Part shown: positions 25,194 through 63,739 of the stretch, in pieces
Numbering within the stretch: the stretch's first letter is position 1
Layout: every line of letters begins with the position of its first letter
NCBI GenBank assembly: GCA_024516155.1
Contig: JAJJXM010000053.1
Coordinates: 62,001-126,000 of the forward strand
From: Pyronema omphalodes
Taxonomy: Eukaryota; Ascomycota; Pezizomycetes; Pezizales; Pyronemataceae
Direction of reading: 5' to 3'
Length of the DNA stretch: 64,000 bases
Notes under the pieces: generated by a model
The model's input: the letters and a program-made list of their open reading frames with translations, nothing else
Database searches by the model: none
What the model was told of the DNA's origin: nothing
Made by a program: the position numbers and the translations under genes

Positions 25194-25326
25194 GCCGAGC
25201 ATCGCACTGGTGAGGCCTCTCAGCATCATCTGATCAAGTCAGATGAGCGGACTCGAACCGGGGTTCGCAGACACGCTTTCCTCTCCACTTCAAGTTGTAT
25301 AAGCCACTACACCAGGCGGACTCGGC
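25194..25326 (-). ncRNA. tRNA-derived Pol III-type element, copy 1
   Basis: On the minus strand the element begins GCCGAGTCCGCC, has an A box TGGTGTAGTGG and a perfect B box GGTTCGAGTCC, then a hairpin CATCTGA/TCAGATG, and ends GATGCTCGGC followed by TTTTT. The first and last six bases (GCCGAG, CTCGGC) are complementary, closing the whole 133-nt unit. A normal tRNA cloverleaf cannot be closed, because the acceptor ends do not pair around the B box. It is therefore a tRNA-derived small RNA or SINE head and not a tRNA gene. Transcription is inferred from the promoter boxes and terminator only. Confidence 0.6.
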
Positions 25327-26654
25327 TGTTATCTGTATCGACACCAGGCTGTATTTATGTTGCAAGGGTTGAAATCGCCCTGCGCTTAGCGCGGCTCTGA
25401 TGGGGCTTTTTATGGGACGGAAGATGATATGGGGTGTGATTTTGGAAGTTTTGTAGGCTTGCGGTATATAGATTATGATGAGGGATGACTCAAGTTGGGA
25501 TAGAACGCGGTAGAAAAGGGTGAGGTTTTGAGAGCGGCTTTGGGTATACATGCGGAATCACTCGAATACCCGCATGCTCCGCCGGACCACCCGCCGCGCA
25601 ACACTTTCCTGGCCTCGCAATATTACTATAACATATCTTCAATACTCAATGAAGAAGTGATGATATTTATAGAATCAAAGAATGACTGAATCACCGTTGA
25701 ATTTTCCCCAGTCCACAGTAAACTCATCACACCATTCCTGCCGTCCCAACTCCATTTCCTCCATCCTCCATGTCCCACACCTCGCCTACCCATACCCTTA
25801 ACAAACAAAAGACACAGAATCACGGCACGGATGCAAATAGTAGATAATGTATGCCATAAACCCTAGGGTTTGCAATGCTGTGACTGGTTTTTTCATGTTC
25901 ATGATTGTTTCCTGAGGTGCGCGCACAACGCGTCACTCTGCATCAGCAGGACCAATTTTCTCGAAGCCTACACACTCCCCTCTTTCCTTTGTCACTAGCT
26001 GCCCACCTAAGACTTGTTCATCTTCTTCTGTGATTATTCCCGCCATGCATGACTTTTGGTTTCTCTGTTTCGCTTCCGTCATCTAAAGCCACTTGGATCC
26101 GAAAACTGCTATCGCCAGCGACCCGATTTTTGCATTCTTTTCCTCCCCCATGGTCGATTACGAATGTAGTTTCCCTTTTTCCGCCTGAGCGTTTCCGCTT
26201 CGTTATGGGCATTGTAGACCTTTGCTCTTTCTCCTTTTCTTCTTCTTTTTTCTTCCGGAAAGCCAAATGGCTCTGAGCTTGATGTCGTCGTTGACGTTGA
26301 GTCTGTCTTGCGTTTTTCCCTTCTAATTCGATAAAGATTCAAAGGTTCCTTGGTCTTTCCTGCTTCTCCTATTACCCCTCGACACTCCCTCCGTAAAGCC
26401 ACTTGGCTCTCTTTTTGTCAAGCAAATCATGCTCACATTCCACTGGGAATCCTTTCTTCCCTTTTCTTCTCCCTGACCAAGACTTTCTCGTCCTGTGTCC
26501 TTGTCTTTGTCTTTCGGTGCGGCATGGGTCGGCTTCTCTCTGCTTTGAGTTAGAACAGAGGTTCTGAAATGCAAATCGTAAGTTCCCTTTCCTATTCCTT
26601 ACGACAACATCAGTTAAAACTTCAACCTGCTAACGTTCCGTTTCCTTGCTAGGT

Positions 26655-27046
26655 ATGAAAACCATCCACTGCTTACAGTCCCTTCCTTTACGTCTGCGTC
26701 CCGCCCTACCTCAGTCTCAAATCCCTTTTTCCGCTTTCTCCTTTTCCCTCTTCTACCCCCGTTTCTTCTTCTCCTTCTTTCGTCTGTTGATAAAATGGTA
26801 TGTCTACTCCACCATTTCCTATCTTTTTGTTCATCAATTTCGGTACGGTTACTAATATTCTTCTTCTTATCCAGCAGCAAGTTTTTCCTCCCCCTTCTCC
26901 ACTTTCATCAACGATTCAAGTGCACGATGCAACCACTGTTGGGCTTCGATGAAGGCTCTTTCTGGTTTGCGACGGTATGTGTGTTCCTAATTTTTCGGCT
27001 TATGTTCTGGATTGAATTATGCTAACGGTGACGAGTATAGGACTAG
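26655..27046 (+). CDS. Putative small spliced gene within the repeat array
   Basis: Three well-formed introns lie close together on the plus strand: 26578-26652 (GTAAGT..GCTAAC..CTAG, in the leader), 26798-26874 (GTATGT..ACTAAT..CCAG) and 26975-27040 (GTATGT..GCTAAC..TATAG). Removing them leaves a frame starting at 26655 (MKTIHCLQSL), crossing both later introns and stopping at 27044, 82 residues long. It is rich in Phe, Leu and Pro with no recognised domain. A different frame in the last exon would stay open longer, so the product is uncertain. The surrounding DNA is pyrimidine-rich, which can create chance splice sites, but three complete signal sets in 460 bases is more than I expect by chance. 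It may be a non-coding spliced RNA. Confidence 0.3.
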
Positions 27047-28097
27047 CTATTATGTTTCCGAATCTGTGTCGCGACTTGTCGACGGTTTGAAGCCCGATAT
27101 CATGTCAGCTGTCGTTCCGGAGAGGCACGTTCCCAACACCTTACCCTCTCGGTCCTAACCACAACTAAAGCTAACCAACCCTTCTTTCAGAAACTTCAAC
27201 TCCGCCAACAACCTCAATTCCCGTTTGCTCCGGCCTTCCTCCATAAGGTAATGAAGAACAGAACCTTAGGGTTGTTGTTCTTGTTCTGTTTTTCGTTCAT
27301 TGGTAAGCCACTATTTATTCTCTCCATCAATAATTTCTCATTCGCTGATACGCCTAGCTAGATATCGATCCGAAGCATATTTGTGATTTGCTGGGTGCCT
27401 TTGTATCCCAATGGGAGACTGGTGGGTGTAGGCAACTTTGCCTTTGTTTCGGTTTGTTTCTTGTGAACTCAGAGGAGCTTATTAAGATCTCTCTGCTTCG
27501 TGTTTTTGCCTTTGCCGGGAAGGGATGTTAAAGCTCGGGGATTTTGACTTTGATAAGCGCTAATGTGGGGGCGGGGTTGGGGGAACCAAAATACAACTTT
27601 GTATGTAAATTGTATGTAAATTGTAACTTTTAACTTATAACTTCAACTTCCTTTACTTGTAAATTCCTACGCGTTTGGAAATTAGACCAAGTGATTTCTG
27701 TTGGACTTTGTTTTTGTTTGATGACCGGAAATCCGAAAATCTGGGATATTAAAATCTTGAGATTGCAAAAATATCTATATCTCTATTGATTTGTACCTCT
27801 TGTCTTAGTTTATAGTATCTATATTATACATATATCTATTTACAAGTTTACCAAGGACTATGATTTGTTTTGTAATATCTCATTTTCAGTACCGCGGCCT
27901 GGTGGAGCAACCCGCCAAGACTCATGTGACCAGCAACAGTTGTCTCTAGACCCGAATTGCGTCCCGTCTCAACATCCGACTGGTAACTTACGACAAGAGA
28001 AACAACATTTATGATGCCGCGTAATTCTGCTTATTGGATTGGTTGTGACTTCAGTCGACTGGGAGGGGGGGCGAGAAGATATATATATCGAGGCTTA

Positions 28098-28900
28098 GGG
28101 TGCGTCTGGATAGCAGAATGCAGGGTTCTTCCGTTACAAGAGACCATCCGTTTACGGTCGGAAACGGACTCTGCGATCTAACGGACAAATTTGCCAAACA
28201 CAAAAGTCCAGATCAGATGAGTTATCCAAACACAGAGGTGAACTTACTTTAGAACGCGGGGCATAAGCACGGGTCGGGAAATTTTCCCCGCTAGGGATCT
28301 TGCCCAAAATCCTCGGTCGCGGGAGACATTACCATACACTCTCCGGCACAATTCTCGGTCGCAGCTCCACAACCGTGTCAACTCAATCAGAACCACCCGA
28401 ATCACGACCCAGATCATTTCCCATACTCTCGCCTGCACAGTTGTCCGTCGCAACCCCACAACCCTCCTTGACTAACCGTGAGTAAAACTGTTGGGCTGAA
28501 TAGATCACCCATTTTGTGTAGGAGCGACGCAAATACGGTTCGGGTGTTGGATATTTCCGAGGTGTTTGTGGTTTGGGAATGATGGATATCGCGGTTAGGG
28601 TAACACAGAAAGCGAAGTATGAAAAAAAAATTTTTTTTTGGTTAGTCACGGAAATTTTGGGCGGGATGAAGCATGTGATGCGAGCAATTTTTCATTTTTG
28701 TAGGACGTGGTTCCGTAACGGACATGAAAAGTACCTCGAGAGGTACTTTCTTGTGACGGACAATTTCTTAGCGACGTAACGGACGCTTTCATTAAGGAAA
28801 GGAGCAAATCGTCCTTTCCAAACACCCCAAAATTTTGCATAACGGAGGGACCCCTGTTAACGGACAAAACCGCCCATTTTCGGCGTATCCAGACGCGCCC
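28098..28900. mobile_element. PIF/Harbinger-type (Tourist-like) MITE
   Basis: An 803-bp element with imperfect terminal inverted repeats: left end GGGTGCGTCTGGATA, right end reverse complement GGGCGCGTCTGGATA (one mismatch). Both ends are flanked by TTA (28095-28097 and 28901-28903), the target duplication typical of this superfamily. It holds no transposase frame and is non-autonomous. The interior has several CGGAC/AACGGAC motifs and a near-perfect palindrome AAAGTACCTC-GA-GAGGTACTTT around 28729-28750. It sits inside a repeat-array unit. Confidence 0.75.
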
Positions 28901-28956
28901 TTAGGATGAGATGTGGGTCGTGCTCTGGATTATTCAATTGGCAGTTTTCAGACAGG

Positions 28957-30096
28957 TGTCACGGCTCGAGAATTATTACCTTCCCCCTCCTCGTCATTTA
29001 TTCATCTATTATCATTCGCTTCATTATCCAGCACTCGTTTGTTTATTTATTTCTATTATCCTTCGGTCTTCGATCATCACTCGTCACTCGCCTGGGTTAG
29101 GGTTACGCTCAATTCCCAAATTGTCAAAAAGGTCACGTGACCTACCTCCAGGGTTAGGGGTCAACTCGGATCCCTTTTCGGAAATTCCGTACCTACGGTC
29201 TACCGATCATCTTATCCGATCAGATAAGATCGGTCACGTGCTCTAATCAATAGTAGATCAGTATGCACGCGCACTGGTCTACTAATGTGCGCACATGTGA
29301 CTAGGGCTAGGGCACGATCATCTTATCGATAAGATAAGATCTAGTCATGTGACCTTATCAGTATTGCACCATCTTTCCAATCGCAGCTGATCTGGATTCA
29401 CGTGACTAGGGTTAGGGTTGCACCCGCACGCACACAAACTAGGGTTAGGTTTGTGACCGTACGCGCACAGCTAGGGTTAGGGTTACGAACGCACGCGCAC
29501 GATTAGGGTTACAGAAGCGCGCGCGTGACTACGCTTAGGGTTACGCTAGCGCGCACGCGAAGTACGCTACCGCGCACGCGAGTTACGCTATCGCGCACGC
29601 GAGATACGCTAACGAGCGCGCGACGAGGCTGTGCACGCAAACACGCTAATTTGGTACGAACGCGTTAGCGCGTCTAGAACGCGCAACCGCGACCGCGTTG
29701 TTTACTTAGTTATTTTTCGGGAAAATTCTGCAAGTAGTGGCTCGGCGTGTAAGGAGGAAAAATTGTATATAAGAGGATTGTTTCTTTGTTTGTTTATTTT
29801 GTTTTTCTTTTCTCCTTACACAGTTATTTGTTTATTTACAAATTCAAATACTTTGTCGAAATCTTTGTTTACGTCCTCGTCCTCGTCCCCGTCTTTGGAT
29901 CTCGTTGTCCCTTGATATCTTTGTTTATTTCCTTAAACTTCTAAACACAGAAAGTCTTTAAGTTGATGCTCGACACAGCTTAAGAGTTTCTAACGTTCAA
30001 GTTATTATAAGGATATATCCATTGAACTCAAGAGTGAATAATTGAGAAGAGCCCTCAGGTTCTCCGTCAGCTATCTCTCCCTTGTTCGCCGTTACA
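28957..30096 (+). repeat. G1 5' LTR
   Basis: Starts TGTCACGG and ends CGTTACA. Carries seven or so TTAGGG-like motifs (about 29094-29547), several CACGTGA and GATA (CTTATC/AGATAAG) motifs, a region of CGCGCACGCG repeats (29510-29615) and a TATA box TATATAAG at 29766-29773 followed by a T-rich start region. Differs from the 3' LTR at only two bases that I can find (near 29616 and 29998). Confidence 0.93.
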
Positions 30097-31279
30097 ACAT
30101 AACTGTGTAATCAAGACCTGCCGGCTCTACCGTCAACTCTCGACTACAGCAAGCTTTACATGCTTCACAACCTCTGGTTCTACGAATTCATCAATCTATT
30201 ACCAATCTTCCGTTCCCTCGAAAACCCCGTCGTCCTCGACGAAATCGAAATTGCTCGACAACTCGGAAACGAATACGCAGCAACTCGAATTCAATATAAC
30301 GACGAAACCAACATCTGGCACCTCCGTTAATCCCTCGAAATGGACCAAAACAACAAGGTCGTCGTGGCCCTGTACCTCAACGAAGCCGAAAGGTTGGAGG
30401 TCGAACAGGACCCCACGAAGATCAAATTGGTCCGCAACGCCGTAAAAGAATACGAACGAGACTGTCAACTCAGGGACGACCTCCGAGCCGAACTCACAGA
30501 AGCTCGAAAGGACAACTCCCTCTACGCTCAACGAATTACCGACTTGGAAAGGGATCACGAAAGCGCCAACGCCTCCGTTCGACTCCTACAAGCCCTTACG
30601 AAGAACGGTCCCCTTCCGAATACCCGTCCTATCGAATTACCTCACCCACCTGAGTTCTCTGGAGAACGCAAGGAACTCTTGAACTTCATCTCGAAGGTCA
30701 GATCCAAGCTCGCCGGAGACTCCTCCCGTTTTACCGATGATCAACATAAGCTACGTTATACTTATGGATATCTCAAAGGCAACGCTCAGAATCAAATTCA
30801 ACCCTACGTCCTTACAGATAAGATTAAGCTTAAGGACGTTGAGGCTCTCATTACAATTCTGGAAGCTGTCTTCGGAGATCCTGATCAAGTTGGTACTGCA
30901 TCTGCGGAATTGGATAAACTTCAACAGGGCAACCGTGAGTTTAGCCAATACTACGCAGAGTTCCAACGATTAATGGCTATTTTGAACTACGATGAAAACG
31001 CAAAGAAGGCTGCTCTGAAGCGTGGGCTCTCTCGAGACCTTCAGACCAGTCTTGTTTACCAAGCCGAAGAACCTCAGAACTTCACCAAATTTGTGGATCT
31101 TTGTATGAAGCTAGATTATAGGATTCGAGCTCATTTAAACACTACAAAGCGGCACGTTCCTTCGGTCCCCAGTCGTTCCAGCTCCACGCCGTCTCGCCCG
31201 GCGTCCCACCCAACGAATACCAATAGTGGTAATTACGGATCGGCCCCCATGGACCTATCAGCTTCCCAAAAGGCTCAGA

Positions 31280-32637
31280 TGTGAACCTGGGTATTGAGGC
31301 TTTCAATACAGAGGCTTTTCCGATCAGTTGGTGCTTCGTTCGAAAGTTATTCAACTAATAGATTTTTCTCAAGAAGCCAGGAAGTTAACTAATCGATCAC
31401 AGGCCGAATAAACTTAAGGGTCTCGTCCTGAGGTATTGGTGTAGAAAGGTATATTCGTAACAAGAGATCAAGTTGCTGATGCTGGAGGAGACGGTGGGAA
31501 GACTTAGGGTCTTTTATAGACTTTCGTCGACAAGTTCGCCCAGACTTCCCAAGGGAACCAACTTCCAAACTAAGCTTAGGAGATAAGACGTGAGTCAATC
31601 CTTTGACAAATCTGCCGATGGCTCGCATCATGCTGTGGGCGCAATTATATTAATTGCGCACTTGCATGATGACCTCGTGTCAGATTAATCCTTGACATTC
31701 CTTGCCGTGCTACCACACCTTCCAATCAGGTATTGGGGTTAAGCGCCTAGTGGAGGGTTACTCCACTTGAGCGCATAAAGCAATGACTCCTCTGATAATG
31801 ACATGTGAGTCATATATCTTATGAGTCGTCTTGATCATACATCTCCCTAGAGAATCTCGATTGCGAATGAAGGAATCTGACATCATAAGGCAGACTATGC
31901 CTTACCGGAGCGCACTGCCCCGTCACATTCCGGTGTGATGTCATACAGCCCCACCTGCGCGCACATGCGCGCAGCCACACCCTGGTGTGTACGCAAACGC
32001 CGTCTTATCTTGCAGTTGGTAGTCATTGGCCTAAGGTCGCGTCATATCAGTTCCATCCAACAGTTTCCCTGAGTGGTGTTCCTTGCTGCAGGACGTCGTC
32101 TCATGCTAATGCAATCTTGACCCTTGTCCTGAGCTCCACTCCTGTTGGCTGACTAGACTCTGCCTTGTTCCTTGGCCGACTATCCGCCCAACTCAGACCT
32201 CGGATGATCCTATTCGTCTGCCTTGCATTGTCCTGAAGAATTCCCTTCTCTTGCAAGCCCTCTGGTAGCCGTGCGTGGTGGAACACGACCTCAAGTATAA
32301 GGAGGTGTCCTCTCGCCGTCGTCTTCTGTCTCCATCAGCGTCGTCTGTAGTTTTCTCATGGGTAAGTCGACACCCATGAGGTAAGTTGATACTCGTTCCC
32401 ATCCATCTGTGATCCTCCCAAACTGACAGTGAATAACAGGTAGCGACGCCTCGGGCCGGGATCCTCGTGAGGTCCTTTCGGAAAGTCACGAATCACGTGA
32501 CGTGGCTAGCTGGAGCTCCTCAGGGGGTTCCGGCCCGGGGCACTAACCTTAATATTCATTCTCCTGTCGAGTTTGCCATGTTCTCATAATGTTATACATG
32601 TTACCTATCCTATACTCACACAATATAGGGTGTGACA
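31280..32637 (-). mobile_element. Solo LTR of the G2 family inside G1 gag
   Basis: 1358 bp from TGTGAACCTGGG to GGGTGTGACA, the same ends and order as the G2 LTRs but visibly diverged. Flanked by TCAGA (31275-31279 and 32638-32642). The host gag frame continues exactly after removing it. Such solo LTRs arise by recombination between the two LTRs of a full element. Same orientation as G2. Confidence 0.92.
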
Positions 32638-32808
32638 TCAGAACCAACGCCGTCGTGATGAACGAATGGCCAAGGGACTTTGTCTTTATTGTGGATCAGC
32701 CGATCACTTCAAGAACGAATGTTCTACGTTGGCAGCAAACAACTCCCGCAAGATTCGCCTAGCCGCCGCCGAGGTTTTGGATATCCCAACAAACCCCGAC
32801 GTCGACCA

Positions 32809-32821
32809 GGGAAAAGAGTAG
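32809..32821 (+). promoter_or_regulatory. G1 candidate -1 ribosomal frameshift site
   Basis: Slippery heptamer G GGA AAA (32809-32815) in the gag frame, followed by GAG and the stop TAG. Shifting back one base continues as AGA GTA GTC into the pol frame. The heptamer fits the X XXY YYZ rule. The same arrangement occurs in G3. Confidence 0.65.
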
Positions 32822-33370
32822 TCCATCAACAGCCTGTTGGCTCTGTTGTTGGACCAGCCCCTGCCTCATCTTTCGTTTCATCTCAGGAAATCGTTTATGT
32901 ATCCGCTAGTTCTTTGTCAAGTAAACAAGAAAACGAATTGGATGGGAATCATTTGGTCGTGCCATGTACACTAACTGAACACAATACCAAAATCGATACT
33001 CATGCTCTCGTAGACTGCGGATGCACAGGAATTTCCTTCATGAACGAAGACTTCGCACGCCAACACAACTTCCCCCGTTATCAATTGAAAAACCCCAAAA
33101 TGGTCGAAGTAATTGATGGACGACCTATTTCATCAGGAGACATCACCGAATACGTTGAAGTCGAATGTACAATAGGAGACCACCATGAATTACTAACTGC
33201 CTACGTTACTCGGCTTGGTCATTATCCCCTCGTTTTAGGAATCCCATGGCTTCGTAAACACGATGTTACAATAAACTTCGCCGATAACGATATCAAATTC
33301 TCATCACCGAACTGCCTCCCCCACCGAACCACGTTAAAACCCACCCCTGTTAAGGGTATTGCTCCGAAAC

Positions 33371-34756
33371 TGTGAACCTGGGCACAGTCCTAACTATGCA
33401 GAGGCTGTTCCGGTCGTATCTCAAGTCTCCTGTCCTGGTGTAGACAGACGCTTCGTTCTCAAGAACTAAAAGAACTTATTCCGAAGATAAGCTAGGAAGA
33501 GAATTAACCGATCACAGGCCGAATAAACTTAAGGGTCGTCTTCGGAGGTATTCGTTGGTGTAGATGTGGTATCGTCGCGTATGGGATCAATGGATGATGA
33601 TGGAGGAGACAGCGGGAAGACATAGGGTCTTTTATAGACTTTCGTCTACAAGTTCGCCCAGCCTTCCTTGGGGAACCAACTGCCGAACTCAGCTTAGGAG
33701 ATAAGACATGGGTCAAAGCTGTGACGCATCTGCTGAGGCTTGCATTATCCTAAGCGCGCAATTAAATTAATTGCTCACTTGCATAATGCTCGCCCTGGTC
33801 AGATTAATCCTTGAAATAGCTCACCGTACTACCACACCTTCCAATGAGGTGCTGGGGTTATGAGTCACACCGGAGGGCAACTCCGTCTGACTGCATTATG
33901 CATGAACTCTTGTGATAATGACGCATGAGTCGTTTATCGGATGAGTCGCGCCATCATAGATCTCCCTAGAGAATCTCGATTGCAAGTAGAGGTCACTGAC
34001 ATCATAAGGCATCCTGATGCCCTACCGGAGTCGATCACTCCGTCACATTCCTGTGTCATGTCATATGTGCCCCACCTGCGCGCACTTGCGCACAGCCACA
34101 CCCTGGTGTGGATGCAAACGCCGTCTTGTTCCAAGTTGGCAGCTCTAGGCCTAAGGACGCGTCATATCAGTTCCATCAAACAGGTTTCCTGAGTGGAGTT
34201 CCCTGCTGGACGTCGTCTCATGCTAATGCACTGTTGACCCTTGTCCTGCATTCCACTCCTGTTTGCTGACTAGACTCTGCCTTATCTCTTTGCCCAACTG
34301 TCCACCCAACTCGTAACACCGGATGACACTCTTGCGCCGCATCTGCATCTTCCTGGAATCTCCTGTTCCTATGCAGCCCCTATTGTAGCCGTGTATTGCC
34401 GAATACTCCTCAGGTATAAGGAGGTGACCTTTCGTCGTCTTCTTCATTCTCCATCAGCGTCGTTCGTAGTTGTCTCAAGGGTAAGTCGACACCCTTGAGG
34501 TAAGTGTTCCTTTCCCCTTCTCCGTCCTGAATCCTCCCAAACTGACAGTGAATAATAGTTTCGACGCCTCGGGCCGGGATCCTCGTCAGGTCCTATCGGA
34601 AAGTCACGAATCACGTGACGTGGCTAGCCGGAGCTCCTCTGGGGGTTCCGGCCCGGGATACTAACCTAATTATTCATTCTCCTGTCGAGTTTGCCATATT
34701 CTCCATAGCGTTATATATGATACCTATTCTATTCTCACACATTATAGGGTGTGACA
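33371..34756 (-). repeat. G2 LTR, left (3' LTR in element orientation)
   Basis: TGTGAACC..GTGTGACA on the plus strand. Eight substitutions and one 1-bp indel separate it from the right LTR by my line-by-line reading; five of the eight look like C-to-T changes at CpG in the right copy. Confidence 0.92.
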
Positions 34757-34926
34757 CCACCTCCCCCCTGTTCAAGCTTCGTCCCGAAGCTCGTAGTTCA
34801 TCATTCTGTGATCGCACCTCGCCGCAGCCAAGTGATTAAGTGATCAATTATAGATGTAGTCCTCCAGCCCCTACATCCTACTACCAACTCTACTTAATGA
34901 AAACCGCGTTGGAAAAAACATTAAGC

Positions 34927-36555: not shown

Positions 36556-36566
36556 GTACCCCCCCG

Positions 36567-51949: not shown

Positions 51950-53089
51950 TGTCACGGCTCGAGAATTATTACCTTCCCCCTCCTCGTCATTTATTCATCT
52001 ATTATCATTCGCTTCATTATCCAGCACTCGTTTGTTTATTTATTTCTATTATCCTTCGGTCTTCGATCATCACTCGTCACTCGCCTGGGTTAGGGTTACG
52101 CTCAATTCCCAAATTGTCAAAAAGGTCACGTGACCTACCTCCAGGGTTAGGGGTCAACTCGGATCCCTTTTCGGAAATTCCGTACCTACGGTCTACCGAT
52201 CATCTTATCCGATCAGATAAGATCGGTCACGTGCTCTAATCAATAGTAGATCAGTATGCACGCGCACTGGTCTACTAATGTGCGCACATGTGACTAGGGC
52301 TAGGGCACGATCATCTTATCGATAAGATAAGATCTAGTCATGTGACCTTATCAGTATTGCACCATCTTTCCAATCGCAGCTGATCTGGATTCACGTGACT
52401 AGGGTTAGGGTTGCACCCGCACGCACACAAACTAGGGTTAGGTTTGTGACCGTACGCGCACAGCTAGGGTTAGGGTTACGAACGCACGCGCACGATTAGG
52501 GTTACAGAAGCGCGCGCGTGACTACGCTTAGGGTTACGCTAGCGCGCACGCGAAGTACGCTACCGCGCACGCGAGTTACGCTATCGCGCACGCGAGATAC
52601 GCTAACGAGTGCGCGACGAGGCTGTGCACGCAAACACGCTAATTTGGTACGAACGCGTTAGCGCGTCTAGAACGCGCAACCGCGACCGCGTTGTTTACTT
52701 AGTTATTTTTCGGGAAAATTCTGCAAGTAGTGGCTCGGCGTGTAAGGAGGAAAAATTGTATATAAGAGGATTGTTTCTTTGTTTGTTTATTTTGTTTTTC
52801 TTTTCTCCTTACACAGTTATTTGTTTATTTACAAATTCAAATACTTTGTCGAAATCTTTGTTTACGTCCTCGTCCTCGTCCCCGTCTTTGGATCTCGTTG
52901 TCCCTTGATATCTTTGTTTATTTCCTTAAACTTCTAAACACAGAAAGTCTTTAAGTTGATGCTCGACACAGCTTAAGAGTTTCTAACGTTGAAGTTATTA
53001 TAAGGATATATCCATTGAACTCAAGAGTGAATAATTGAGAAGAGCCCTCAGGTTCTCCGTCAGCTATCTCTCCCTTGTTCGCCGTTACA
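51950..53089 (+). repeat. G1 3' LTR
   Basis: Matches the 5' LTR over its full length with two substitutions. The shared sequence runs three bases further (ACA), but that is chance: placing the edge at 53089 restores the ACAGG target duplication. Confidence 0.93.
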
Positions 53090-53194
53090 ACAGGAGACAG
53101 AGATGATATATGGTTTCCGAAATTTGATGTACGTTGGCTGTGAGTAGACTGGCTTCCATTAGACATCGGTTTTCCTGAATCCTAAGGAAGAGCG

Positions 53195-53355: not shown

Positions 53356-53367
53356 GGTTATGAGCCC
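53356..53367 (+). other. Copia primer-binding site for half initiator-Met tRNA
   Basis: GGTTATGAGCCC directly abuts the 5' LTR. It is the exact complement of GGGCTCATAACC, the anticodon arm of initiator tRNA-Met. Priming from a cleaved half tRNA at this place is known for Drosophila copia and related elements. Confidence 0.75.
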
Positions 53368-53461
53368 TTGCGTAACCGCTACACTTACCGTTATCCTTGA
53401 TTAGTCATAAGTTATATATATTTCCTCACTTTCCCCTTAATTTTAATCACTCTCTCCCACG

Positions 53462-54376
53462 ATGTCCGACGAAGTCCAGGAACCAACTGCCCTAAAGTGC
53501 CCCATTCTGACGGTGGCCAATTATGCGGAGTGGAAGGACCCCATCCACTTTATCTTGGCCGGGAAAAGCGCCTGGAATATCGTGAACGGGAAGGAGACGC
53601 GCCCTGCTGGCGGTACCAGCCAACAAGCTGCGAGGGATCTCCAATACTTCGATGAAAGGCCGGCCAGAGCTACCCAGATCATATTTGATCACTGCGACAT
53701 CACCTGCCGCAGGGTCATCACCGGACTCGACAACCCACGGGAGATGTGGCTTAAACTCGAAGCCCGGTTTGATAACTCGAAAACAAACTCTGGACGAAGG
53801 AACCTCTGGATTAAGTTCTGGAGATCAAAGCCTAACCCCGGGGCGTCCATGTCGAAATGGATAACTGATCTCCTTCACATTCAGGCTCCACTTACTGGGA
53901 CGGTTATAGATATCAGCGACACTGCGCTGGTTAATTATGTTATTGCAAATCTCCCCGACTCCTACGGAGTTACAAAACACGAGCTCGCAAAACTTGATAA
54001 TATTGCAGTTGACGAGCTCCAGAAGATCCTGCACGACCACGAACACATGTGGGAAGCCACCCTAGGATCCCCGAAGGGCGAGGCGCATGCTACGACGACC
54101 AAGTGGTGCGACCACTGTAAACGCTCTAGCCACAACACGAAGGAATGCTACGCAAATCGCAACACCAACAAAGGCGCGGCATCTGCGAGCGCCGGACCGT
54201 CCAGACCTACTAAAACTTCGAAAAAGGAGGATGTCCAATGCCACTACTGTACAAAGAAGGGGCACGTTGCGACAGAGTGCAAACTCAGATCTTCGGCTAA
54301 CGCCATACGCGAGCGGTACAAGCTTCGCTCCAGTGCGAAAATTGCCGAGTTAGACAACACTGATCTCGGTATTTGA
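53462..54376 (+). CDS. Copia gag
   Basis: 304 residues from the first ATG after the leader. The N-terminal and middle parts match Copia gag (TVANYAEWKDPIHFILAGKS; GASMSKWITDLLHIQ; YVIANLPDSYG). Two CCHC zinc knuckles follow, CDHCKRSSHNTKEC and CHYCTKKGHVATEC. It ends at TGA (54374-54376), after which the same frame goes on into the protease. It packages element RNA. Confidence 0.88.
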   Translation: MSDEVQEPTALKCPILTVANYAEWKDPIHFILAGKSAWNIVNGKETRPAGGTSQQAARDLQYFDERPARATQIIFDHCDITCRRVITGLDNPREMWLKLEARFDNSKTNSGRRNLWIKFWRSKPNPGASMSKWITDLLHIQAPLTGTVIDISDTALVNYVIANLPDSYGVTKHELAKLDNIAVDELQKILHDHEHMWEATLGSPKGEAHATTTKWCDHCKRSSHNTKECYANRNTNKGAASASAGPSRPTKTSKKEDVQCHYCTKKGHVATECKLRSSANAIRERYKLRSSAKIAELDNTDLGI

Positions 54377-57300
54377 CTCGGGAACTCCAGCACCTCCCTC
54401 ACAGCGCAAGTCTTGATCGCAACAGACTCGTCCGCTGAGACACATACATGGGTGCTCGACTCTGGTGCAACGCACCATTTTTGTAATGATAAATCTGCTT
54501 TTCTTATTGATTCTTTAGCTACTTGCAAGTCCATCAACATTCGCTTAGGTGACAATAGTACAGTCACCACCAACACCTACGGAAAAATCATACTCAATAA
54601 TCTCTTTCAAATTTCTGCACTATACGTTCCCACGTTTCGACTTTCCCTTTTCTCCCTGCCCCTCTTCGATAAAAGGGGGTGGTAAATTACTATGGCGGAC
54701 GGTACTTGTCCTGTGAAAGACAAGACCTCCAAAACAATCATTGTCGCTCGCATGAAGGACAATCTTTACAGATGGACAGCAGAGGCTATTAAGGAGGACC
54801 ACGACGCCCTGATAACCACTCGTTCTGGTGCAGGCGTCGACATTAACTCTATTCCCTCCTCGACCCGAACAACAATATCATCGAATAAACGAACAAGTGC
54901 AGACGTTGACTTTACGCGTCCAAGCGACAAAGACCTTCGAACAGCACATAGACAGTCTTTCCGCCTTGAACCAACAAGCAATTTTGAGATGTGGCACAGG
55001 AGACTGGCCCACCTCAATACCGAGTCCTTGTCTAAAATCATTAATTCGACTGATAAAACCACAACATCAGATCATCTCCAGTCCTGCACAACGTGCATAC
55101 AAGCCAAAAATCGACAGTCCTTTATTCGATTACCAACCGAACGTGCGAGCAAGCCCTTCGAACTTGTCCACTCGGATGTCTGCGGCCCGATGTCGACTCC
55201 GTCAATCAGCCAACAACGGTATTATATCATCTATATTGATGACTTTAGTCGTTTCGCCAAAGTTTACTTTCTGAAATCAAAATCCACAGACGCGGTACTA
55301 CCGGTATTCCAAGAATACAAAGCGTGGATTGAATCTCAAGGACATAAGATTCATCGATTCAGGTGTGATAATGGCACAGGGGAATGCAACAATCAACAGT
55401 TCCGTTCTTTCCTGGCGAAAAACGGTATCTCGTTCGAACCCTCACCACCCTTCACACAGCATAAAAACGGAACAGCCGAGAGATTCATTCAGACGATCAA
55501 CGGCAAAGCACGTTCCATGCTAATAGACGCCCAAGTTCCTCATCGCTTCTGGGCTGAGGCTGTTAACACAGCGGTGTACCTTTACTCGATATCTCCGACT
55601 AGGACGCTCAAAGGCTGGCTAAGTCCTCATGAGGCCCTGTTTCACAGGCCGCCTCAGCTGCTACACCTTCGAAGATTCGGTTGCACGGTCTTCAAGCATA
55701 TACCGAAGGAGCAGAGGACAGACAAGAACTGGAGCGCACGCGCGTCACACAGTATGATGGTTGGATACACGGATTCGTCAAAGATTTGGCGCATCTATGA
55801 TTTCAATTCACGTTCTGTCGTGCGCGCTTCCAACGTCGTTTTCCTAGAGGACAATAATGCTTTCGATTCTGAAGGACGTCCCAATACATCAGAGGAAATC
55901 ATCAAGGCAATATCTGACTGTTTCCCTGATATCGTTGAAGGGGGTGATGAGAATGCGTCAGCGCTCATATCACATGAGATAGACGCCCTCATTCAGAGTA
56001 TGTACAAATGACCACCCCAACTTTTTCCGCGTCACCGCTGTAGGACCTTTCACGGCCACACGGTATAGTCTTTATCACATTATCTTCGAGTCGGATCAGC
56101 CTTCATGCTGACTCACTCTAACTATACATTGACAATTCTGTCTTGAATGTCACTGTCCCGATCAGCCTCCATGCTGTCCGGACTACTCTTGCTAGGCGAA
56201 TATGCCACGCACTGATTATCATCAGTTCAAGCATACTTATCCTGGAATTTTATCCGATTAACACTCCGCTGTGCATCTCCTCACGAGATTCTGCCACGGA
56301 ATCCCTGTCTACTGCATTCCCTTGTTTCTCAAATTTCTTTCTCTACTGCTCTGATATTCACTTCTCTGAACTAACATCCTAATTCTCAGATGCTTCTAAT
56401 GACATGAATTCACTGTCCCTACGCGACGAGCGACTGAAGGCCAACAAACTAAACAAGTCCCGCTACGAAGACATTGATGTTGACGACGCCCTGGCCTCGG
56501 CCTTTCTCGCCAAAGCAACTATAGACGATCCCGACGAGGCCATAGGTCCTGATTTACTTGACGGCAACCCGACCTCTTACCCCGCAGCAATGAAGAGCGC
56601 TGACCGGGACAACTGGAGAACTGCGATGCAAGAAGAATGGAACTCTTTACTGATAAACGAAACCTTCCAGGCCTTCAAATCAAATGACAATGCAGAACCT
56701 CTCCGACCAGTGTCATCGCCTGATGCATTTGACAATCAAACATCCTACAGCGGCATCACTGTTCCCTTTGGATGCAAGCCCTTGAAGTGTCGATGGATTT
56801 ACAAAACCAAACGCAACATTGACGGCAGCACAAAGTTCAAGGCCCGACTGGTTATAAAGGGTTATGAACAAGTTCCGGGAATTGATTATGATGAGACATA
56901 TGCACCTGTCTCCAAGCTAAGTACTCTACGTTACCTGCTAAGCTTATCTGCAACCAGGGGGTGGTCAGTCGATCAAATGGATGTTGTCACGGCCTTCCTC
57001 AACCCAGCCATTGACAACGACAGGACTTTCATGTCCATGCCTCCTGGCATCGAATGGCTCGATAAACGTCTATCAAAAACATCGACGGTCCGCCTGCTGA
57101 AAGCCCTGTACGGCCTAAAACAGGCACCCAGATTATGGTGGGCCCAGATTAATGACTTCCTCATGAAGCAAGGTTTCCGACAGGCACACGCCGACTCCAA
57201 CCTCTACCTCATGAAGGACGCATTTCTACTCTTATATGTCGATGACATCTTGATCTTCAATCTGACAAAACAGAGGATGGGCGACAACATCAAGAAGGCC

Positions 57301-58233
57301 CTCAGTGCTCGCTTCACAATGACAGATCTCGGAAAAGCGACTCGTTTTCTCGGCCTGGAGCTCGAATACTTGCCTGATGGAAGCATTGCCATCTCGCAGA
57401 AGCATTACATTGAGGGGGTGATTGCCAGATACGGTCTTCTTGAGGCCGCACCCACCTCTTCCCCAATGGACATACATGTTGATCTTGAAAATACTGACTG
57501 CGAAGACAAGACCACTGATGAACAGCAAAAACGCCTGTATCTATCAATGGTCGGATCACTGATGTACGCAGCAATCGGAACTCGTCCTGACATCGCCTTC
57601 GCGGTGACTGCCCTCAGCCGATACAATCAGTCGCCTCTAGCAATGCACATGACTGCTGCCAAAAGGGTCATCCGATACTTGAAAGGTACGAAAAATTTGT
57701 CGATTATCTACAAACGTAACCACGACATACCGCAGGACTGTTTGCGACTCTTCTCCGACAGCGACTGGGCCGGCAGTACAGCCGATCGGAAAAGCGTCGG
57801 GGGGTGCGTAGTCCTTGCGCCAGGAGCGGACGGGCCGATCCACTGGAGCTCAAAGACGCAGTCCGTCATCGCCCTCTCCACTCTTGAAGCCGAGTACATT
57901 GCATGCAGCAATGCGACCCGTGAAGCGATCTGGTTCCGCCTATTGATGGACGACACCGAAGCCTGGGATAACAAAGTGCCGACCTCGGTCTGCTGCGACA
58001 ACATGGGAGCACTTCGCCTCCTTCAGACCGGCGTCATCAAGGCAAAAACAAAACACATCGATGTGAAGTTTCACCACTCGATCGACGAAGCTAGAAAGGG
58101 AACGGTATCGTTCGAATACATTGCGTCCAAAGAAAATGTCGCAGATATCCTCACCAAACCGCTCCCTGGACCAACACACGCGTTGGCCGTGAAACTTTTA
58201 GGGATGGAAACGCTGAGTGGCAATAATGATTAA
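54377..58233 (+). pseudogene. Copia pol (protease, integrase, RT, RNase H)
   Basis: Same frame as gag from 54377 to 55997, then, after a 392-nt intron-like gap, 56390-58233. Protease: WVLDSGATHHFCND. A stop TAA at 54683-54685 follows KRGW where CAA would fit. Gag-pre-integrase: MWHRRLAHLN, CTTCIQAKNR. Integrase core: SDVCGPMS, CDNGTGECNN, KNGTAERFIQ. RT: FKARLVIKGYEQVPGIDYDE, QMDVVTAFLN, LYVDDILIF. RNase H: FSDSDWAGSTADRKSVGG and STLEAEYIACSNA, ending KENVADILTKPLPG. Catalytic residues are present; only the stops and the gap break it. The gap may be a true intron and the gag stop may be read through, so the TAA could be the sole disabling lesion. Confidence 0.85.
55998..56389 (+). other. Intron-like segment in Copia pol
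   Basis: 392 nt beginning GTATGT and ending in a pyrimidine-rich stretch with ACTAAC about 18 bases before TTCTCAG. Removing it joins ATTCAGA|ATGCTTC in frame, between the integrase C-terminus and RT linker. The segment itself is closed by stops in every frame. Splice signals are of the fungal consensus type. It could also be an insertion or decayed linker. Confidence 0.55.
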
Positions 58234-58477
58234 TGGGTCTGGTTTGAATGAATAAGTGTGTGTTGTGATTGAAGTATGGCTGCTGATTGCTGATTATGAT
58301 GATGATTGAATTGTGTTGTTTCTATTTGGGTTGTTCTTCTTATGGGTTTTTACTTCTTCTTTTATGGGTAATTGGGTATTTTCTTTTTCTATGGTATTGT
58401 TCTTGTTTTCTGTTATGATGGATTGTTATTTTTTCTTATTATTATGTTTGTAGCACCCGTCCTTAGACGAGGGGGTG

Positions 58478-58638
58478 TGTTGAAGTGCGCCTAAGGCCCT
58501 AGTGCTTAGGTGGAGGTGGACCACTCTCTATGTATAGGCACTCGCTTGCCCGTCTATGTCTGACTCCTTACCCTCGTTAATACATTCGGTCACCACCTCC
58601 ACTTTCTTCTTCTCCTCGTGCCTGTGAGACCTTCGACA
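58478..58638 (+). repeat. Copia 3' LTR
   Basis: 161 bp, matches the 5' copy except one base. Confidence 0.92.
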
Positions 58639-58832
58639 GAGTGATAACTGACTGTTGATACTGCATTGATAGCTATGCTCATAACGCACCTCTTGCCCCG
58701 AGCATACAGTTTCTGGGGTTCAATTACGACCCCAGAGACTCCAAACACATATCTTTCCTTCGCCTTGCAAATAATATTAATGTGAGAAAATAAAATATAA
58801 TAAGCTTCTCGCCTAACAAAAAAAATCAAAAA

Positions 58833-58965
58833 GCCGAGCATCGCACTGGTGAGGCCTCTCAGCATCATCCGATCAAGTCATATGAGCGGACTCGAACCGG
58901 GGTTCGCAGACACGCTTTCCTCGCCACTTCAAGTTATGCAAGCCACTACACCAGGCAGACTCGGC
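58833..58965 (-). ncRNA. tRNA-derived Pol III-type element, copy 2
   Basis: 133 nt, ends GCCGAG/CTCGGC complementary, A and B boxes intact, TTTTT then T8 downstream. The internal hairpin has one broken pair (CATATG for CAGATG). Confidence 0.6.
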
Positions 58966-60264
58966 AGTTATCTGTATGGACTGCAGGCTGTATATATGTT
59001 GCAAGGGTTGAAGTGGTCCTAGTGTGTCTGGAGCGGCTCTGATATGGGGCTTATTGTGGAACGGAAAGTGATAGGGAGTGTCGGTTTATGAGCCTTCTAA
59101 ACTTGGGATATGTGAATTGTAATGACGGATGACCTTATAGTTATAGGACGCGGTATAAGAAGGTGTGAGCGGCTGAGGCCGGCATCATCGATACATGTGT
59201 GATCACTCTAATGGCCGCATATAGGTTTTGGGTGTTAGAAGTTGGGGGTTAGGTTCTTGGTATGTAATGACCTGCGTTGCCATGTATCATGGTCGTCAGC
59301 ATTTTTGCTTTAATAAGCGCTAAGGCGCGGGGGGTGGGGAGAATCAAAAGACAAACTTTTATGTCAATTTAATCGTACGTTAAATCTGTTATTCAGAATA
59401 CATTATTGAATGTTAGCTTTCGTTTGTGAATTGCCCATGGAACGATTGCTGTAACCTAGGATTCTGCAAGCATATCCCTTTATATATAGCGTCTCGAAAG
59501 ATGACTTATAGTAGGTTAAAATAAGCTTTTTCCCATTTAAAGTTATTTTTCGCCGATAGTTAATTCCGGATTGGATCTCATCATGCGCAATGTGCCAAAT
59601 TTCTATATATCAAAATAACAAACCACCACTTTCCTCTCACAACTTTCAAATTTTCAATAAGTAATCTAATCCCTCTGTCTTCTCTACAATTCCTCATCCA
59701 TCATCTCCTTTCATTAGCCATGAAGCCCATACGTAATAGCGATGGCCAAAATGAGTGATTTTCAGACTTCTAACTTTATGTTGCGAGTCCGAAGTGATGT
59801 TTTTATTGAAATTGAGGTTGCGATTAAAATTAAGATCAAGAAAACCGGTCACGAAAGACGACTAACAAAACGGTAGGAATTGTAAGAAAAATAGTGATGG
59901 ATAATCATCATATATGACTCGGCATTGGCGGGTGTCGAAATCGGCGTCGCCGTCAGCCGGAGGAGTTGTCACATTTGTCAAAGAAATATTTTTGTTGAAC
60001 TTCGGCGTAGTTCAGCGTAGACCTGCTGTGAGCGGGTGAACTGAATTGATGCGGTATTTCTAACCGAAGAGTGATGAGCTTGACTTTTGAAACCGCGTTG
60101 AAGCCTTGCACGAAACGAGGCTCTTACCCACAGTATACCGTTCTCGGGTGTTCGATTACAACCCCAGAGACTTCAAACACATACGTTTCCTATGCTTAAA
60201 ACAGTGCGTTCATCAGAGGCAAATAAAAATATAATAAGCTTCACGCTTAATAAAAAAATCAAAA

Positions 60265-60397
60265 GCCGAGCATCGCGCTGGTAAGGCCTCCCAGCATCAT
60301 CCGATCAAGTCAGATGAGCGGACTCGAACCGGGGTTCGCAGACACGCTTTCCTCACCACTTCAAGTTGTATAAGCCACTACACCAGGCACACTCGGT
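60265..60397 (-). ncRNA. tRNA-derived Pol III-type element, copy 3
   Basis: 133 nt, ends ACCGAG/CTCGGC (five pairs), A and B boxes intact, TTTT then a T7 run downstream. Confidence 0.6.
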
Positions 60398-61529
60398 GTT
60401 ATCTGTAAGGACAGCAGGCTGTATTTATGTTGCAAGGGTTGAAATCGCCCTGCGCTTTGTGCGGCTCAGATGGGGCTTATTATGGGACAGAAAATGATAG
60501 TGGGTGTGATTTTAAAAGGTTTGTAGACTTACGGTATATGCATTATTCTGAGAGATGACTTGGGTGTAGATAGGACGAGGCAGAAAAAGTGGGCTTTTGT
60601 GAGCGGCTAATTTGGATATTCATGCGGCATCACTCGAATAGCCGCATGCTCCGCCGCGCAACATGCACCTTCCCAACCTTGTAATATCATTGTAACTTAT
60701 CTTCTACATTCAGTAAAACTTTATTTTCAAAAATTACTGCATCTCCGTTGAATTTTCCTCAGTCCACCTTAAACTCATCCACCAATGTCTCAGCTGCCCC
60801 CCATTTCTGCCGTTCCAACCCCATTTCCTCCATCCTCCACGTTCCACACCTGCCCTAGCTAAGTCTCAAACTTCGGAAAGAGACGGTACAGACAGCATCA
60901 ATGCAAACAGAAGAAAACTCTTGGAACAAACCCTAGGGTATCCGGTGCTGTGACTAGTTTTGATACCTATGATTCATACTGTAATATTCAAGGCGCAAAG
61001 GTCTGGTACAGCAGTCCGGTATTTAGAGTGCATTCTTATTCGACCAGCAAATTGGACAAAACACTTACGGTAAGAAAAATAGCTATTTGTTATACTTTAT
61101 AATTCCTGTTATACTGTGTAATTCTAGTTATCCAGGTGATTATGGCTTTCATTGACTGGGAGGTAAAAAGGTATATAATCGAAAATCGAAGATTGAGGTG
61201 TTTGGGTAACATGCGGGTCGTAATCTGAATTAACTAATCACCAGGAGATGGAGAGGAGATATATATTTTAAACTATGGCATGGACCTGGTGCGAGCATAT
61301 AGACAGATTTCATATTATTGGCGTTGCTGCGGCAGAGTGATAGTGGAGTCATGATACTGTGTTGCTGTTATGCTGATAATGAGCCTTCACCCCGAGTACG
61401 CCGGTCTCGAGTGTTCGATTAGAACCCCAGAGACTTAAAACACATATCCTTTTTCCGCTTAAAATATTGCGTGTATCAGAGAAAACTAAAAATATAAGAA
61501 GCTTCTCACTTAATAAAAAAAAGTTAACA

Positions 61530-61662
61530 TCCGAGCATCGCGCTGGTTAGGCCTCTCAGCATCATCTGATCGAGTCAGATGAGCGGACTCGAACCGGGGT
61601 TCGCAGACACGCTTTCCTCACCACTTCAAGTTGTACAAGCCACTACACCAGGCACACTCGGT
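61530..61662 (-). ncRNA. tRNA-derived Pol III-type element, copy 4
   Basis: 133 nt, ends ACCGAG/CTCGGA (five pairs), A and B boxes and the internal hairpin intact. The T-run starts about 10 bases further down. Confidence 0.6.
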
Positions 61663-62882
61663 GTTATCTGTAAGGACAGCAGGCTGTATTTATCTTGCAA
61701 GGGTTGAAATCGCCCTGCGCTAAGTGCGGCTGTTCTCTGGAACTGAAAATGATAGGGGACGTGATTTTGGAAGTTTTGTGGACTTCTGGTCTATGTATTA
61801 TGATGACGGATGGCTCAAGTTTGGATAAGACGCGGCATAAGAAGGTGTGAGCGGTTGAGGCCGGCATCTTCGGTACATATGTGATCACTCGAACAGCCGC
61901 ATATAGTATCTGGGTGTTAAAAGTTGGGGATAGGTTCTTGGTATGTAATGACCTGCGTTGCCATGTATCATAGTCGTCGGCATTCTTACTTTGATAAGGT
62001 CGCTAAGGCGCGGGAGGTGGGGGGAATTAAATTACAGACTGTTATGTCAATTTAACTTCACGTTAACTCACTTTAGAATAAGTTACTGGTTGTGACCTAA
62101 AATTCTCCAAGCATATCCCTTTACATATTACGTCTCGAAAGATGACTTATAGTAGTTTAACATAAGCTTTTTCCTCTCTGAACTTATTTTTCGCCGATCG
62201 TTGACTCCGGATTGGATCTCATGATGCGCAATGTGCCAAATCTCCATATATCAAAATAACAAACCACCACTTTCCTCCCACAACTTTCAAATGCTTAATC
62301 AGTGATCTAATGCCACTGTCTTCACATCTATAATCTTCTTTCATTAGTCATCAAGCCCATACGTGATACCGATCGCCAAAATGAGTGATTTTCAGACTTT
62401 CAACTTTATGTCGGGAGTCCGAAGTGATATTTGTATTGAAACTGAGATTTCAATTAAGGTTGAGATCCAGAAAACCGAGCGCGAAACACGACTAACAAAA
62501 CGGTAGGAATTGTAAGAGAAATAGTGATGCGTAATCACAATATATGACTCGGCATTGGCGGGTGTCGAAATCGGCGTCGGCGCCAGCCGGGGGAGTTGTC
62601 AGATTCGTCAAGGAAATATGGCTGTCAAACTTTGGTTTAGACCTCTTGTGAGCAGAGGGAATGATTTGATGCGGTATTGCTGACCGAAGAGTGATGAGTG
62701 GCTTTTGAAATCATGTTGAAGCCTTGCTTGAAACGAGCCTCTTACCCCAGTATACCGTTCTCGGGTGTTCGATTACAACTCCAGAGACTTCAAACACATA
62801 TGTTTCCTTCGCTTCAAATATTGCGTTGATCAGAGGCAAATAAAAATATAATAAGCTTCTCACTGAACAAAAAGATCAAAAA

Positions 62883-63014
62883 ACCGAGCATCACCTAGTG
62901 AGGCCTCTCAGCATCATCCGATCAAGTCAGATGAGCGGACTCGAACCGGGGTTCGCAGACACGCTTTCCTCACCACTTCACGTTATGCAAGCCACTACAC
63001 CACGCCCACTCGGC
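62883..63014 (-). ncRNA. tRNA-derived Pol III-type element, copy 5
   Basis: 132 nt, ends GCCGAG/CTCGGT, B box intact, A box altered (GTGGTGTAGTGG context preserved but CGTGG before it). T6 directly downstream. One base shorter near the 3' end. Confidence 0.55.
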
Positions 63015-63606
63015 AGTTATCGGTATGGACAGCAGGCGGTATTTATGTTGCAAGGGTCGAAGTGGTCCTGTGTCTAGAGCGGCTCTGTTGGGGCTTATAT
63101 TGCACGAAGAATGTCAGAGTGCGTCCGTAGATGCGTCTCGTGAACTTAGAATATATGTATTGTAATGTGGGATCACTTCAGAGGGGATAGAACTCGGCAT
63201 AAGAAGATGGGGGAGGTTGAAAGCAGCTTTGGTACATGCACAATCACTCGAATTGCCGCATGTCCCGCCGCGCTGCAACGCCCCGCCAACTCTGCAATAT
63301 CACTCCAAATCGGAGGAGTTGCCAGAGTTATCAAGGATATATGGTTGAAAAACATTGGTGTAGACCTGCTGTGAGCAGATAGACTAATGTTATGAAGCGG
63401 CGTTGCTAGAAGAGGAGTGGTAATTGACGTTGGGTACATTGTTGATGCCATACTGATGATGAGCCTTCACCCTGAGTATGCCGGTATCGAGTGTTCGATT
63501 ACAACCCCAGAGACTCCAAACACATATCTTGCCTTCGCCTTGCAAATAATATTAATGTGAGAAAATAAAATATAATAAGCTTCTCACTTAATAAAAAAAG
63601 TGAACA

Positions 63607-63739
63607 TCCGAGCGTCGCGCTGGTTAGGCCTCTCAGCATCATCTGATCAAGTCAGATGAGCGGACTCGAACCGGGGTTCGCAGACACGCTTTCCTCACCA
63701 CTTCAAGTTGTATAAGCCACTACACCAGGCAGACCCGGA
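63607..63739 (-). ncRNA. tRNA-derived Pol III-type element, copy 6
   Basis: 133 nt, ends TCCGGG/CTCGGA; pairing is kept with one G-U wobble in place of an A-U pair. A and B boxes intact, T-run about 12 bases downstream. Confidence 0.58.

What the first reader, a model, noticed from the sequence alone, without database searches (positions are those of the whole stretch)
25194..63739. Six-copy, length-constant 133-nt RNA-like element with tRNA promoter boxes and a closing stem
Copies at 25194, 58833, 60265, 61530, 62883 and 63607 (all minus strand) are 133, 133, 133, 133, 132 and 133 nt long, although the flanking array has drifted and gained indels. Each keeps an A box, a perfect B box GGTTCGAGTCC, and complementary ends (GCCGAG..CTCGGC). 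Copy 6 keeps the stem through a G-U pair. A 7-bp hairpin CATCTGA/TCAGATG follows the B box in most copies, and a T-run terminator stands directly or shortly downstream. Constant length plus paired ends suggests selection on a folded Pol III transcript, for example the head of a SINE or a stand-alone small RNA derived from a tRNA.
Basis: partly seen in the sequence, partly recalled or inferred. Interest (0 to 1): 0.75.

Follow-up and report, generated by a model that had tools for sequence, protein, structure and literature searches.

The report
Arrayed small-RNA genes in a fungus
A fire-loving cup fungus appears to carry a clustered family of 35 copies of a small folded RNA gene, with tRNA-type start and stop signals but no known relative; the sequence argues that the RNA is functional, although no transcript has yet been shown.

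Summary
The six window copies belong to 35 full-length copies in Pyronema omphalodes: 34 within the first 134 kb of contig C182, in both orientations, and one on C189; two more are fragments. Every full copy has a TATA-like box at -31/-32, an A box, an invariant B box and a T-run starting within 8 nt of its 3' end. Mean pairwise divergence is 6.8% inside the unit, 0.3% in its core and about 27% in the flanks. The predicted RNA is a paired-end, three-armed fold (mean z -3.1; flanks about 0); 32 of 35 copies keep all five closing pairs. Two-sided compensatory changes were not found (0 of 42 pairs), so covariation is no evidence here. It is not a dispersed SINE nor a recognisable tRNA, matches no Rfam family, and shows no target duplication or paired LTRs. 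Best reading: a tandemly amplified Pol III small-RNA gene family, working like rodent 4.5SH (tandem genes, A/B boxes plus TATA) with 4.5SI-like paired ends. Expression, relatives in other fungi and the RNA's target are untested. Up- and downstream flanks have unrelated genealogies, so recombination shuffles the array and may contribute to the homogeneity.

The parts
25194..25326 (-). RNA gene copy 1 (133 nt)
25352..25358 (-). TATA-like box of copy 1, at -32
   Evidence: sequence
25303..25314 (-). A box of copy 1 (RNA positions 13-24)
25249..25259 (-). B box of copy 1 (RNA positions 68-78), identical in 35 of 35 full copies
25249..25283 (-). near-invariant core (RNA positions 44-78), 0.3% mean divergence
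25189..25193 (-). T5 terminator of copy 1, directly after the closing stem
25333..25576 (-). conserved upstream part of the repeat unit of copy 1, ending at the shared left end
58833..58965 (-). RNA gene copy 2 (133 nt)
58991..58997 (-). TATA-like box of copy 2, at -32
60265..60397 (-). RNA gene copy 3 (133 nt)
60422..60428 (-). TATA-like box of copy 3, at -31
61530..61662 (-). RNA gene copy 4 (133 nt)
61687..61693 (-). TATA-like box of copy 4, at -31
62883..63014 (-). RNA gene copy 5 (132 nt)
63040..63046 (-). TATA-like box of copy 5, at -32
63607..63739 (-). RNA gene copy 6 (133 nt)
63764..63770 (-). TATA-like box of copy 6, at -31

Best explanation
A tandemly amplified family of RNA-polymerase-III small-RNA genes. 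TFIIIC would bind the A and B boxes and place TFIIIB on the TATA-like box at -31/-32; Pol III would start at about the first base of the 133-nt unit and stop at the T-run that follows it, giving an RNA of about 135-150 nt. The RNA folds with its 5' and 3' ends paired (helices 2-6/128-132, 9-17/115-124, 22-26/109-113) into a closing stem that opens into two arms (32-76 and 79-104); the paired ends would protect it from decay. The near-invariant stretch 44-67, which lies between the boxes and has no known promoter role, would be the working surface that binds a protein or another RNA. Shown: gene anatomy, copy number, divergence pattern, stable predicted fold. Inferred: transcription, the ends, stability, and that the RNA rather than the DNA is the selected product. 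The partner is unknown; many copies would supply dosage.
For: TATA-like box at -31/-32 in 35 of 35 full copies, and a run of T4 or longer starting within 8 nt of the end in 35 of 35, against T4 in 8.7% of 20-nt windows 100-500 nt downstream. B box in 35 of 35, A box exact in 33 of 35 and consensus-like in 35 of 35, internal T4 in 1 of 35. Divergence 6.8% in the RNA, 0.3% in core 44-78, 1.0% in the A box, 11% at the TATA box, 27% in both flanks, and not monotonic with distance (-20..-1 is 18%, the TATA region further out 11%). Fold: mean z -3.06 on the sense strand, 0.16 and -0.33 in two flank windows. The consensus fold pairs 98.5% of 1426 cells. No reading frame: stops in frame 1 of 34 of 35 copies and in frames 2 and 3 of 35 of 35, with 1-nt length changes. 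The 24-nt core 44-67 occurs 35 times in the genome with up to 3 mismatches, each time in one of these copies (33 exact, 2 with one mismatch).
Against: No transcript data were available. No two-sided compensatory change was found (0 of 42 pairs, shuffles 0.6 on average); by my count of the pair types, variants that break a pair (19 types, 17 of them in one copy only) outnumber those that keep one (13 types). The antisense strand also folds better than shuffles (mean z -2.41). Upstream and downstream flanks have uncorrelated distances (r 0.05), so recombination around the unit could add to its homogeneity. Inside the RNA, C-to-T changes fall mostly at CA and CG (32 of 700 and 26 of 691 cells, against 1 of 560 at CC and 4 of 699 at CT), which I do not explain. 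No relative in another species could be searched for.
Confidence: 0.7

Rival explanations
1. Homogenised satellite: the unit is a non-functional or formerly functional tRNA-like piece kept similar only by unequal crossing-over and gene conversion inside the array.
For: 34 of 35 full copies sit in one array; upstream and downstream distances are uncorrelated (r 0.05, p 0.21), and RNA distances correlate weakly with flanks (r 0.08 and 0.15), which points to frequent exchange within or near the unit.
Against: Conversion does not explain why conservation follows promoter, core and terminator and is not monotonic with distance, why TATA position and T-run are kept in 35 of 35, or why the single C189 copy has the unchanged core.
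Confidence: 0.12
2. DNA element: the A/B boxes recruit TFIIIC as a chromatin boundary or clustering site, and any RNA is a by-product.
For: Identical B box in 35 of 35 copies; in the window, retrotransposon ORFs lie between the copies, which would suit a boundary role.
Against: TATA box, terminator and paired ends, of no use for TFIIIC binding alone, are kept in 35, 35 and 32 of 35 copies; the 24-nt stretch 44-67 between the boxes is unchanged in 33 of 35 copies.
Confidence: 0.1
3. Head of a tRNA-derived SINE, or a SINE family that became arrayed.
For: A and B boxes 55 nt apart, start to start; tRNA-related SINEs of 140-493 bp in low copy number are described from Aspergillus fumigatus (PMC5063351, abstract).
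Against: Copies share both flanks and were found on two contigs only; no target duplication seen at the single C189 copy; a T-run follows the closing stem at once or after 7-8 nt, with no body or tail.
Confidence: 0.04
4. Pol III promoter inside the LTR of a small non-autonomous LTR retrotransposon (Helenus, TRIMp3).
For: The single C189 copy is a 1.54-kb unit with sharp ends in unrelated flanks; Helenus is known from fungi, animals and plants with boxes A and B in its LTRs (PMC10886601, abstract and passages).
Against: No second terminal repeat, no inverted ends and no 5-bp target duplication were seen by eye at the C189 unit; copies are not dispersed.
Confidence: 0.04

Closest known systems
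Rodent 4.5SH RNA genes
   Same: Small Pol III RNA with A and B boxes plus a TATA-like box at -31/-24; hundreds of copies, each part of a longer tandem repeat; lineage-restricted (PMC10137851 passages; PMC3440375 passages).
   Different: About 100 nt, related to 7SL RNA and SINE pB1, 4-5 kb unit, ends not complementary and short-lived. Here 133 nt, unit pitch from about 0.73 kb, 35 copies, paired ends. No direct sequence comparison with 4.5SH was made.
Rodent 4.5SI RNA
   Same: A and B boxes with a TATA-like box; 5' and 3' ends pair over 16 nt, which was shown to prolong the RNA's life (PMC3440375 abstract and passages; PMC10137851 passages).
   Different: Three genes in mouse and rat, related to SINE B2; here a 35-copy array, and no dispersed relative was found in the genome.
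tRNA-derived SINEs of fungi (AfuSINE2)
   Same: Pol III promoter in a tRNA-related part, and some are transcribed (PMC5063351 abstract).
   Different: Flanked by 4-14 bp direct repeats, with an extended tRNA-unrelated region; here neither was seen.
Helenus / TRIMp3 retrotransposons
   Same: tRNA-like Pol III promoter inside a repeated fungal element (PMC10886601 abstract and passages).
   Different: LTR pair, primer-binding site and 5-bp target duplications in fungi; none seen here.

Membership tests
Type 2 Pol III gene | A box and B box inside the transcribed region | tested here: met
   B box 35 of 35, A box consensus 35 of 35
Type 2 Pol III gene | T-run terminator directly downstream | tested here: met
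   T4 or longer starting within 8 nt in 35 of 35
Type 2 Pol III gene | Transcribed by Pol III | not testable with these tools
   no RNA or ChIP data held
4.5SH-like tandem Pol III RNA genes | Gene repeated as part of a longer tandem unit | tested here: met
   pitch 724-1535 bp in 23 of 35 intervals on C182, larger in 12; both flanks shared
4.5SH-like tandem Pol III RNA genes | Homology to 7SL RNA / SINE B1 | tested here: inconclusive
   only indirectly: no Rfam family reached its threshold in the window; no direct comparison made
tRNA-derived SINE | Dispersed copies with independent flanks and target duplications | tested here: not met
   (target duplication judged by eye at one copy)
tRNA gene | Cloverleaf recognised by tRNA models | tested here: not met
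   ARAGORN found none in the window (bacterial setting) and none at default threshold, introns allowed, in 6 of 6 copies given out of 34 (relaxed to 60% it forced calls, the one fully shown being on the opposite strand); RF00005 not among matches up to E 10, which cover the six window copies
Helenus / TRIMp3 | Two LTRs, PBS/PPT, 5-bp target duplication | tested here: not met
   ends of the C189 unit and two array units aligned; no LTR pair or target duplication seen; PBS/PPT not looked for
Y RNA | Ro60 (TROVE) partner in the genome | tested here: not met
   PF05731: 0 matches in a six-frame search without regard to introns; the control rang in 1 of 14 prokaryote genomes
Any Rfam family | Score at or above gathering threshold | tested here: not met
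   0 matches in 64 kb; chance-level matches at E 3.2-6.9 around copy 1

The most novel reading that the evidence does not exclude
A previously undescribed, lineage-restricted class of abundant structured Pol III RNA in Pezizomycetes, kept at high dosage by an array of 35 genes, with a near-invariant 24-nt element (44-67) that binds an as yet unknown partner, possibly RNA from the retrotransposons that crowd the same region, in the way 4.5SH RNA is reported to neutralise antisense B1 insertions.
Probability: 0.4. Interest if true: 0.65.

Novelty: new member of a known kind. Interest (0 to 1): 0.5.

Why it matters
The lineage-specific Pol III RNAs with tandem genes or paired ends that I read about are from rodents. 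None of the papers listed (listings capped at 8-20 rows; titles and starts of abstracts) names an arrayed small RNA of this kind in a filamentous fungus. If expressed, this one would add an abundant RNA without known family to a genus with a published developmental transcriptome (P. confluens), and the contrast between a near-invariant core and 27% diverged spacers in one genome is a ready map of which bases matter. It also warns that repeat annotation can hide RNA genes: the array looks like a satellite.

Tried and rejected
SINE, tRNA, Helenus-type TRIM, Y RNA and Rfam membership were considered and rejected as listed. RIP as a source of the spacer divergence was rejected: in the flanks C-to-T rates show no CpA bias (upstream CA 0.066, CC 0.091, CG 0.069, CT 0.074; downstream 0.085, 0.102, 0.125, 0.076), and the RIP indices of three array stretches (TA/AT 0.80-0.83) are close to those of four other stretches (0.73-0.77); the RNA itself does show CA and CG as the main C-to-T contexts. 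A coding role was rejected: stops and 1-nt length changes. Covariation was tested and gave nothing. The exact 24-nt core was not found in viral contigs or genome contigs; by their description these hold viral, bacterial and archaeal sequences, so this says nothing on fungi. Complementarity to ribosomal RNA was planned but the rRNA search did not complete. Vault (MVP) was not tested. No other fungal genome could be searched.
Full report
What and where. The window is C182:62001-126000 of a 60.8-Mb, 232-contig genome. A window ORF is 100% identical over its whole length to a Pyronema omphalodes protein on a contig of 483,662 bases, and C182 has just that length, so the host is taken to be this ascomycete (taxonomy).

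The observation. A genome search with copy 1 found 36 matches at E up to 0.001, 35 on C182 and one on C189 (the tool warns that counts of repeats are lower bounds, here 36 of 36 candidates were scored); BLAST on the fetched stretches added one more diverged fragment. After completing the ends, 35 are full-length (34 on C182:333-133664, one on C189 from 127190) and two are fragments. On C182 they form three blocks of minus, plus and minus orientation; the pitch is 724-1535 bases in 23 of 35 intervals and larger in 12. In the window, ORFs of Ty3- and Ty1-type retrotransposons (types named from recall) lie in the large gaps.

Gene anatomy. In 35 of 35 full copies a TATA-like box lies at -31 or -32, and a run of four or more T begins 0, 7 or 8 nt after the unit; T4 occurs in 8.7% of 20-nt windows 100-500 nt downstream. 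The B box is identical in 35 of 35, the A box exact in 33 of 35 and consensus-like in 35 of 35, and an internal TTTT occurs in 1 of 35. The tRNA-Ser-like loci and nearly all tRNA-Leu-like genes seen also end in T-runs, so this is how other Pol III genes look here; the U6 genes show no clear TATA box at that place.

Selection. Mean pairwise divergence over the 35 copies is 27.4% at -245..-60, 11.3% over the TATA region, 17.9% at -20..-1, 6.8% in the RNA, 1.0% in the A box, 0.3% in positions 44-78, 6.2% in 79-104, 11.9% in 105-133, 19.2% in the first 15 nt downstream (where the T-run shifts), 11.6% at +16..+45 and 27.1% further down (profile). Core 44-78 has 2 minor-allele cells of 1225 where the flank rate predicts about 224.

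Structure. Copy 1 folds at -56.9 kcal/mol, z -3.66. Over 35 copies mean z is -3.06 (86% below -2), against -2.41 for the antisense strand (63% below -2) and 0.16 and -0.33 for two flank windows (9% and 11%). The RNAalifold consensus on 34 distinct copies has helices 2-6/128-132, 9-17/115-124, 22-26/109-113, an arm 32-76 and an arm 79-104. 98.5% of 1426 cells pair, but no pair has a two-sided change, and shuffles of the letters do as well on every measure. One position pair (86-96) occurs as U-G 24, U-A 9 and C-G 1, which is compatible with pairing but is not a proof. By my count, 13 variant types keep a pair and 19 break one; the keeping ones include the frequent ones (10-123 G-U 9, 17-115 G-U 9, 14-118 G-U 5, 86-96 U-A 9), while 17 of the 19 breaking ones occur in a single copy. 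32 of 35 copies keep all five closing pairs, against 24 of 2286 windows of the array. The fold is thus supported by energy and end pairing, not by covariation.

Not a SINE, tRNA or LTR element. With the C189 upstream part as query, 33 of 34 matches lie next to an RNA copy, the exception being a partial one at C182:30283, and no match to any part of the unit was found outside C182 and C189 (at E up to 0.001). The C189 unit is about 1.54 kb with sharp ends shared with two array units, and I saw no target duplication, inverted ends or terminal repeats there (judged by eye). In 34 of 35 copies the conserved upstream part begins at about the same left end (ATGCGG..., often an imperfect palindrome with CCGCAT), with several different sequences before it; copy 32176 lacks it. 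ARAGORN found no tRNA in the window and none at default threshold in the 6 copies of 34 given to it; Rfam gave none. TROVE/Ro60 was not found.

Recombination. Distances of the upstream and downstream flanks are uncorrelated between copies (r 0.05, p 0.21); RNA with downstream r 0.15, p 0.016. I infer that units have exchanged halves through the RNA region. This is the main caution: exchange may help to keep the units alike. It does not by itself place the minima of divergence on TATA box, A box and core.

How it most likely works. By analogy, not by homology: rodent 4.5SH and 4.5SI genes have A and B boxes and a TATA-like box at -31/-24 needed for efficient transcription, 4.5SH genes come in hundreds of tandem repeats (PMC10137851, passages), and pairing of the 16-nt ends of 4.5SI RNA lengthens its life (PMC3440375, abstract and passages). 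The present genes join the tandem layout of the first with the paired ends of the second. The stretch 44-67 lies between the promoter boxes and has no known promoter reason to be invariant, so I take it as the binding surface.

Novelty. My searches for Pyronema or Pezizomycetes with SINE, tRNA, Pol III or ncRNA terms and for fungal Pol III RNAs or SINEs listed no title or abstract start that describes this element; the listings are capped and most subscription papers are not held. The P. confluens genome paper, seen in passages only, reports 12% transposable elements and RIP-like sequence in 0.46% of the genome and, in those passages, no such RNA. I class it as a new member of a known kind: tandem type 2 Pol III small-RNA genes.

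Noticed in passing
G000 C159:229990-392024; loci L050-L054, L002: A second arrayed Pol III-type family: tRNA-Leu(UAG)-like genes on both strands (23 B-box sites on C159 in the cut listing; 14 aligned). 13 of the 14 have a T5 or longer run just downstream and 11 of 14 a TATAT about 33 nt upstream (counted by eye); ARAGORN calls the three in L051 tRNA-Leu(tag).
   Followed up: partly
RNA units, +16..+45 downstream of each RNA (for copy 1 about window 25149-25178): A block like GAGAAGCTTATTATATTTTTATTT after the terminator is conserved (11.6% divergence) about as well as the TATA region (11.3%); no role known.
   Followed up: partly
left end of the units, about 250 nt upstream of the RNA (copy 1: about 25550-25576): 34 of 35 units begin at about the same place (ATGCGG..., often an imperfect palindrome) while the sequence before it falls into several unrelated classes, as if units were joined or moved at this point.
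   Followed up: partly
L055, L056 (G000 C156:1054401-1055300): Two U6 genes in opposite orientation about 700 bases apart, each with a B-box-like GGTTCGATCC shortly after its T-run, recalling the downstream B box of yeast U6 (recalled).
   Followed up: no
window 29405-29511 and 52398-52504: Two arrays of a 32-base unit with TAGGGTTAGGG inside, on either side of retrotransposon ORFs, probably in LTRs.
   Followed up: no
G000 C182:1-724: The contig begins inside the array, so the true number of RNA genes may exceed 35.
   Followed up: no
RNA positions, all copies: C-to-T differences inside the RNA sit mainly at CA and CG (58 of 63 cells), unlike the flanks, where contexts are even.
   Followed up: no
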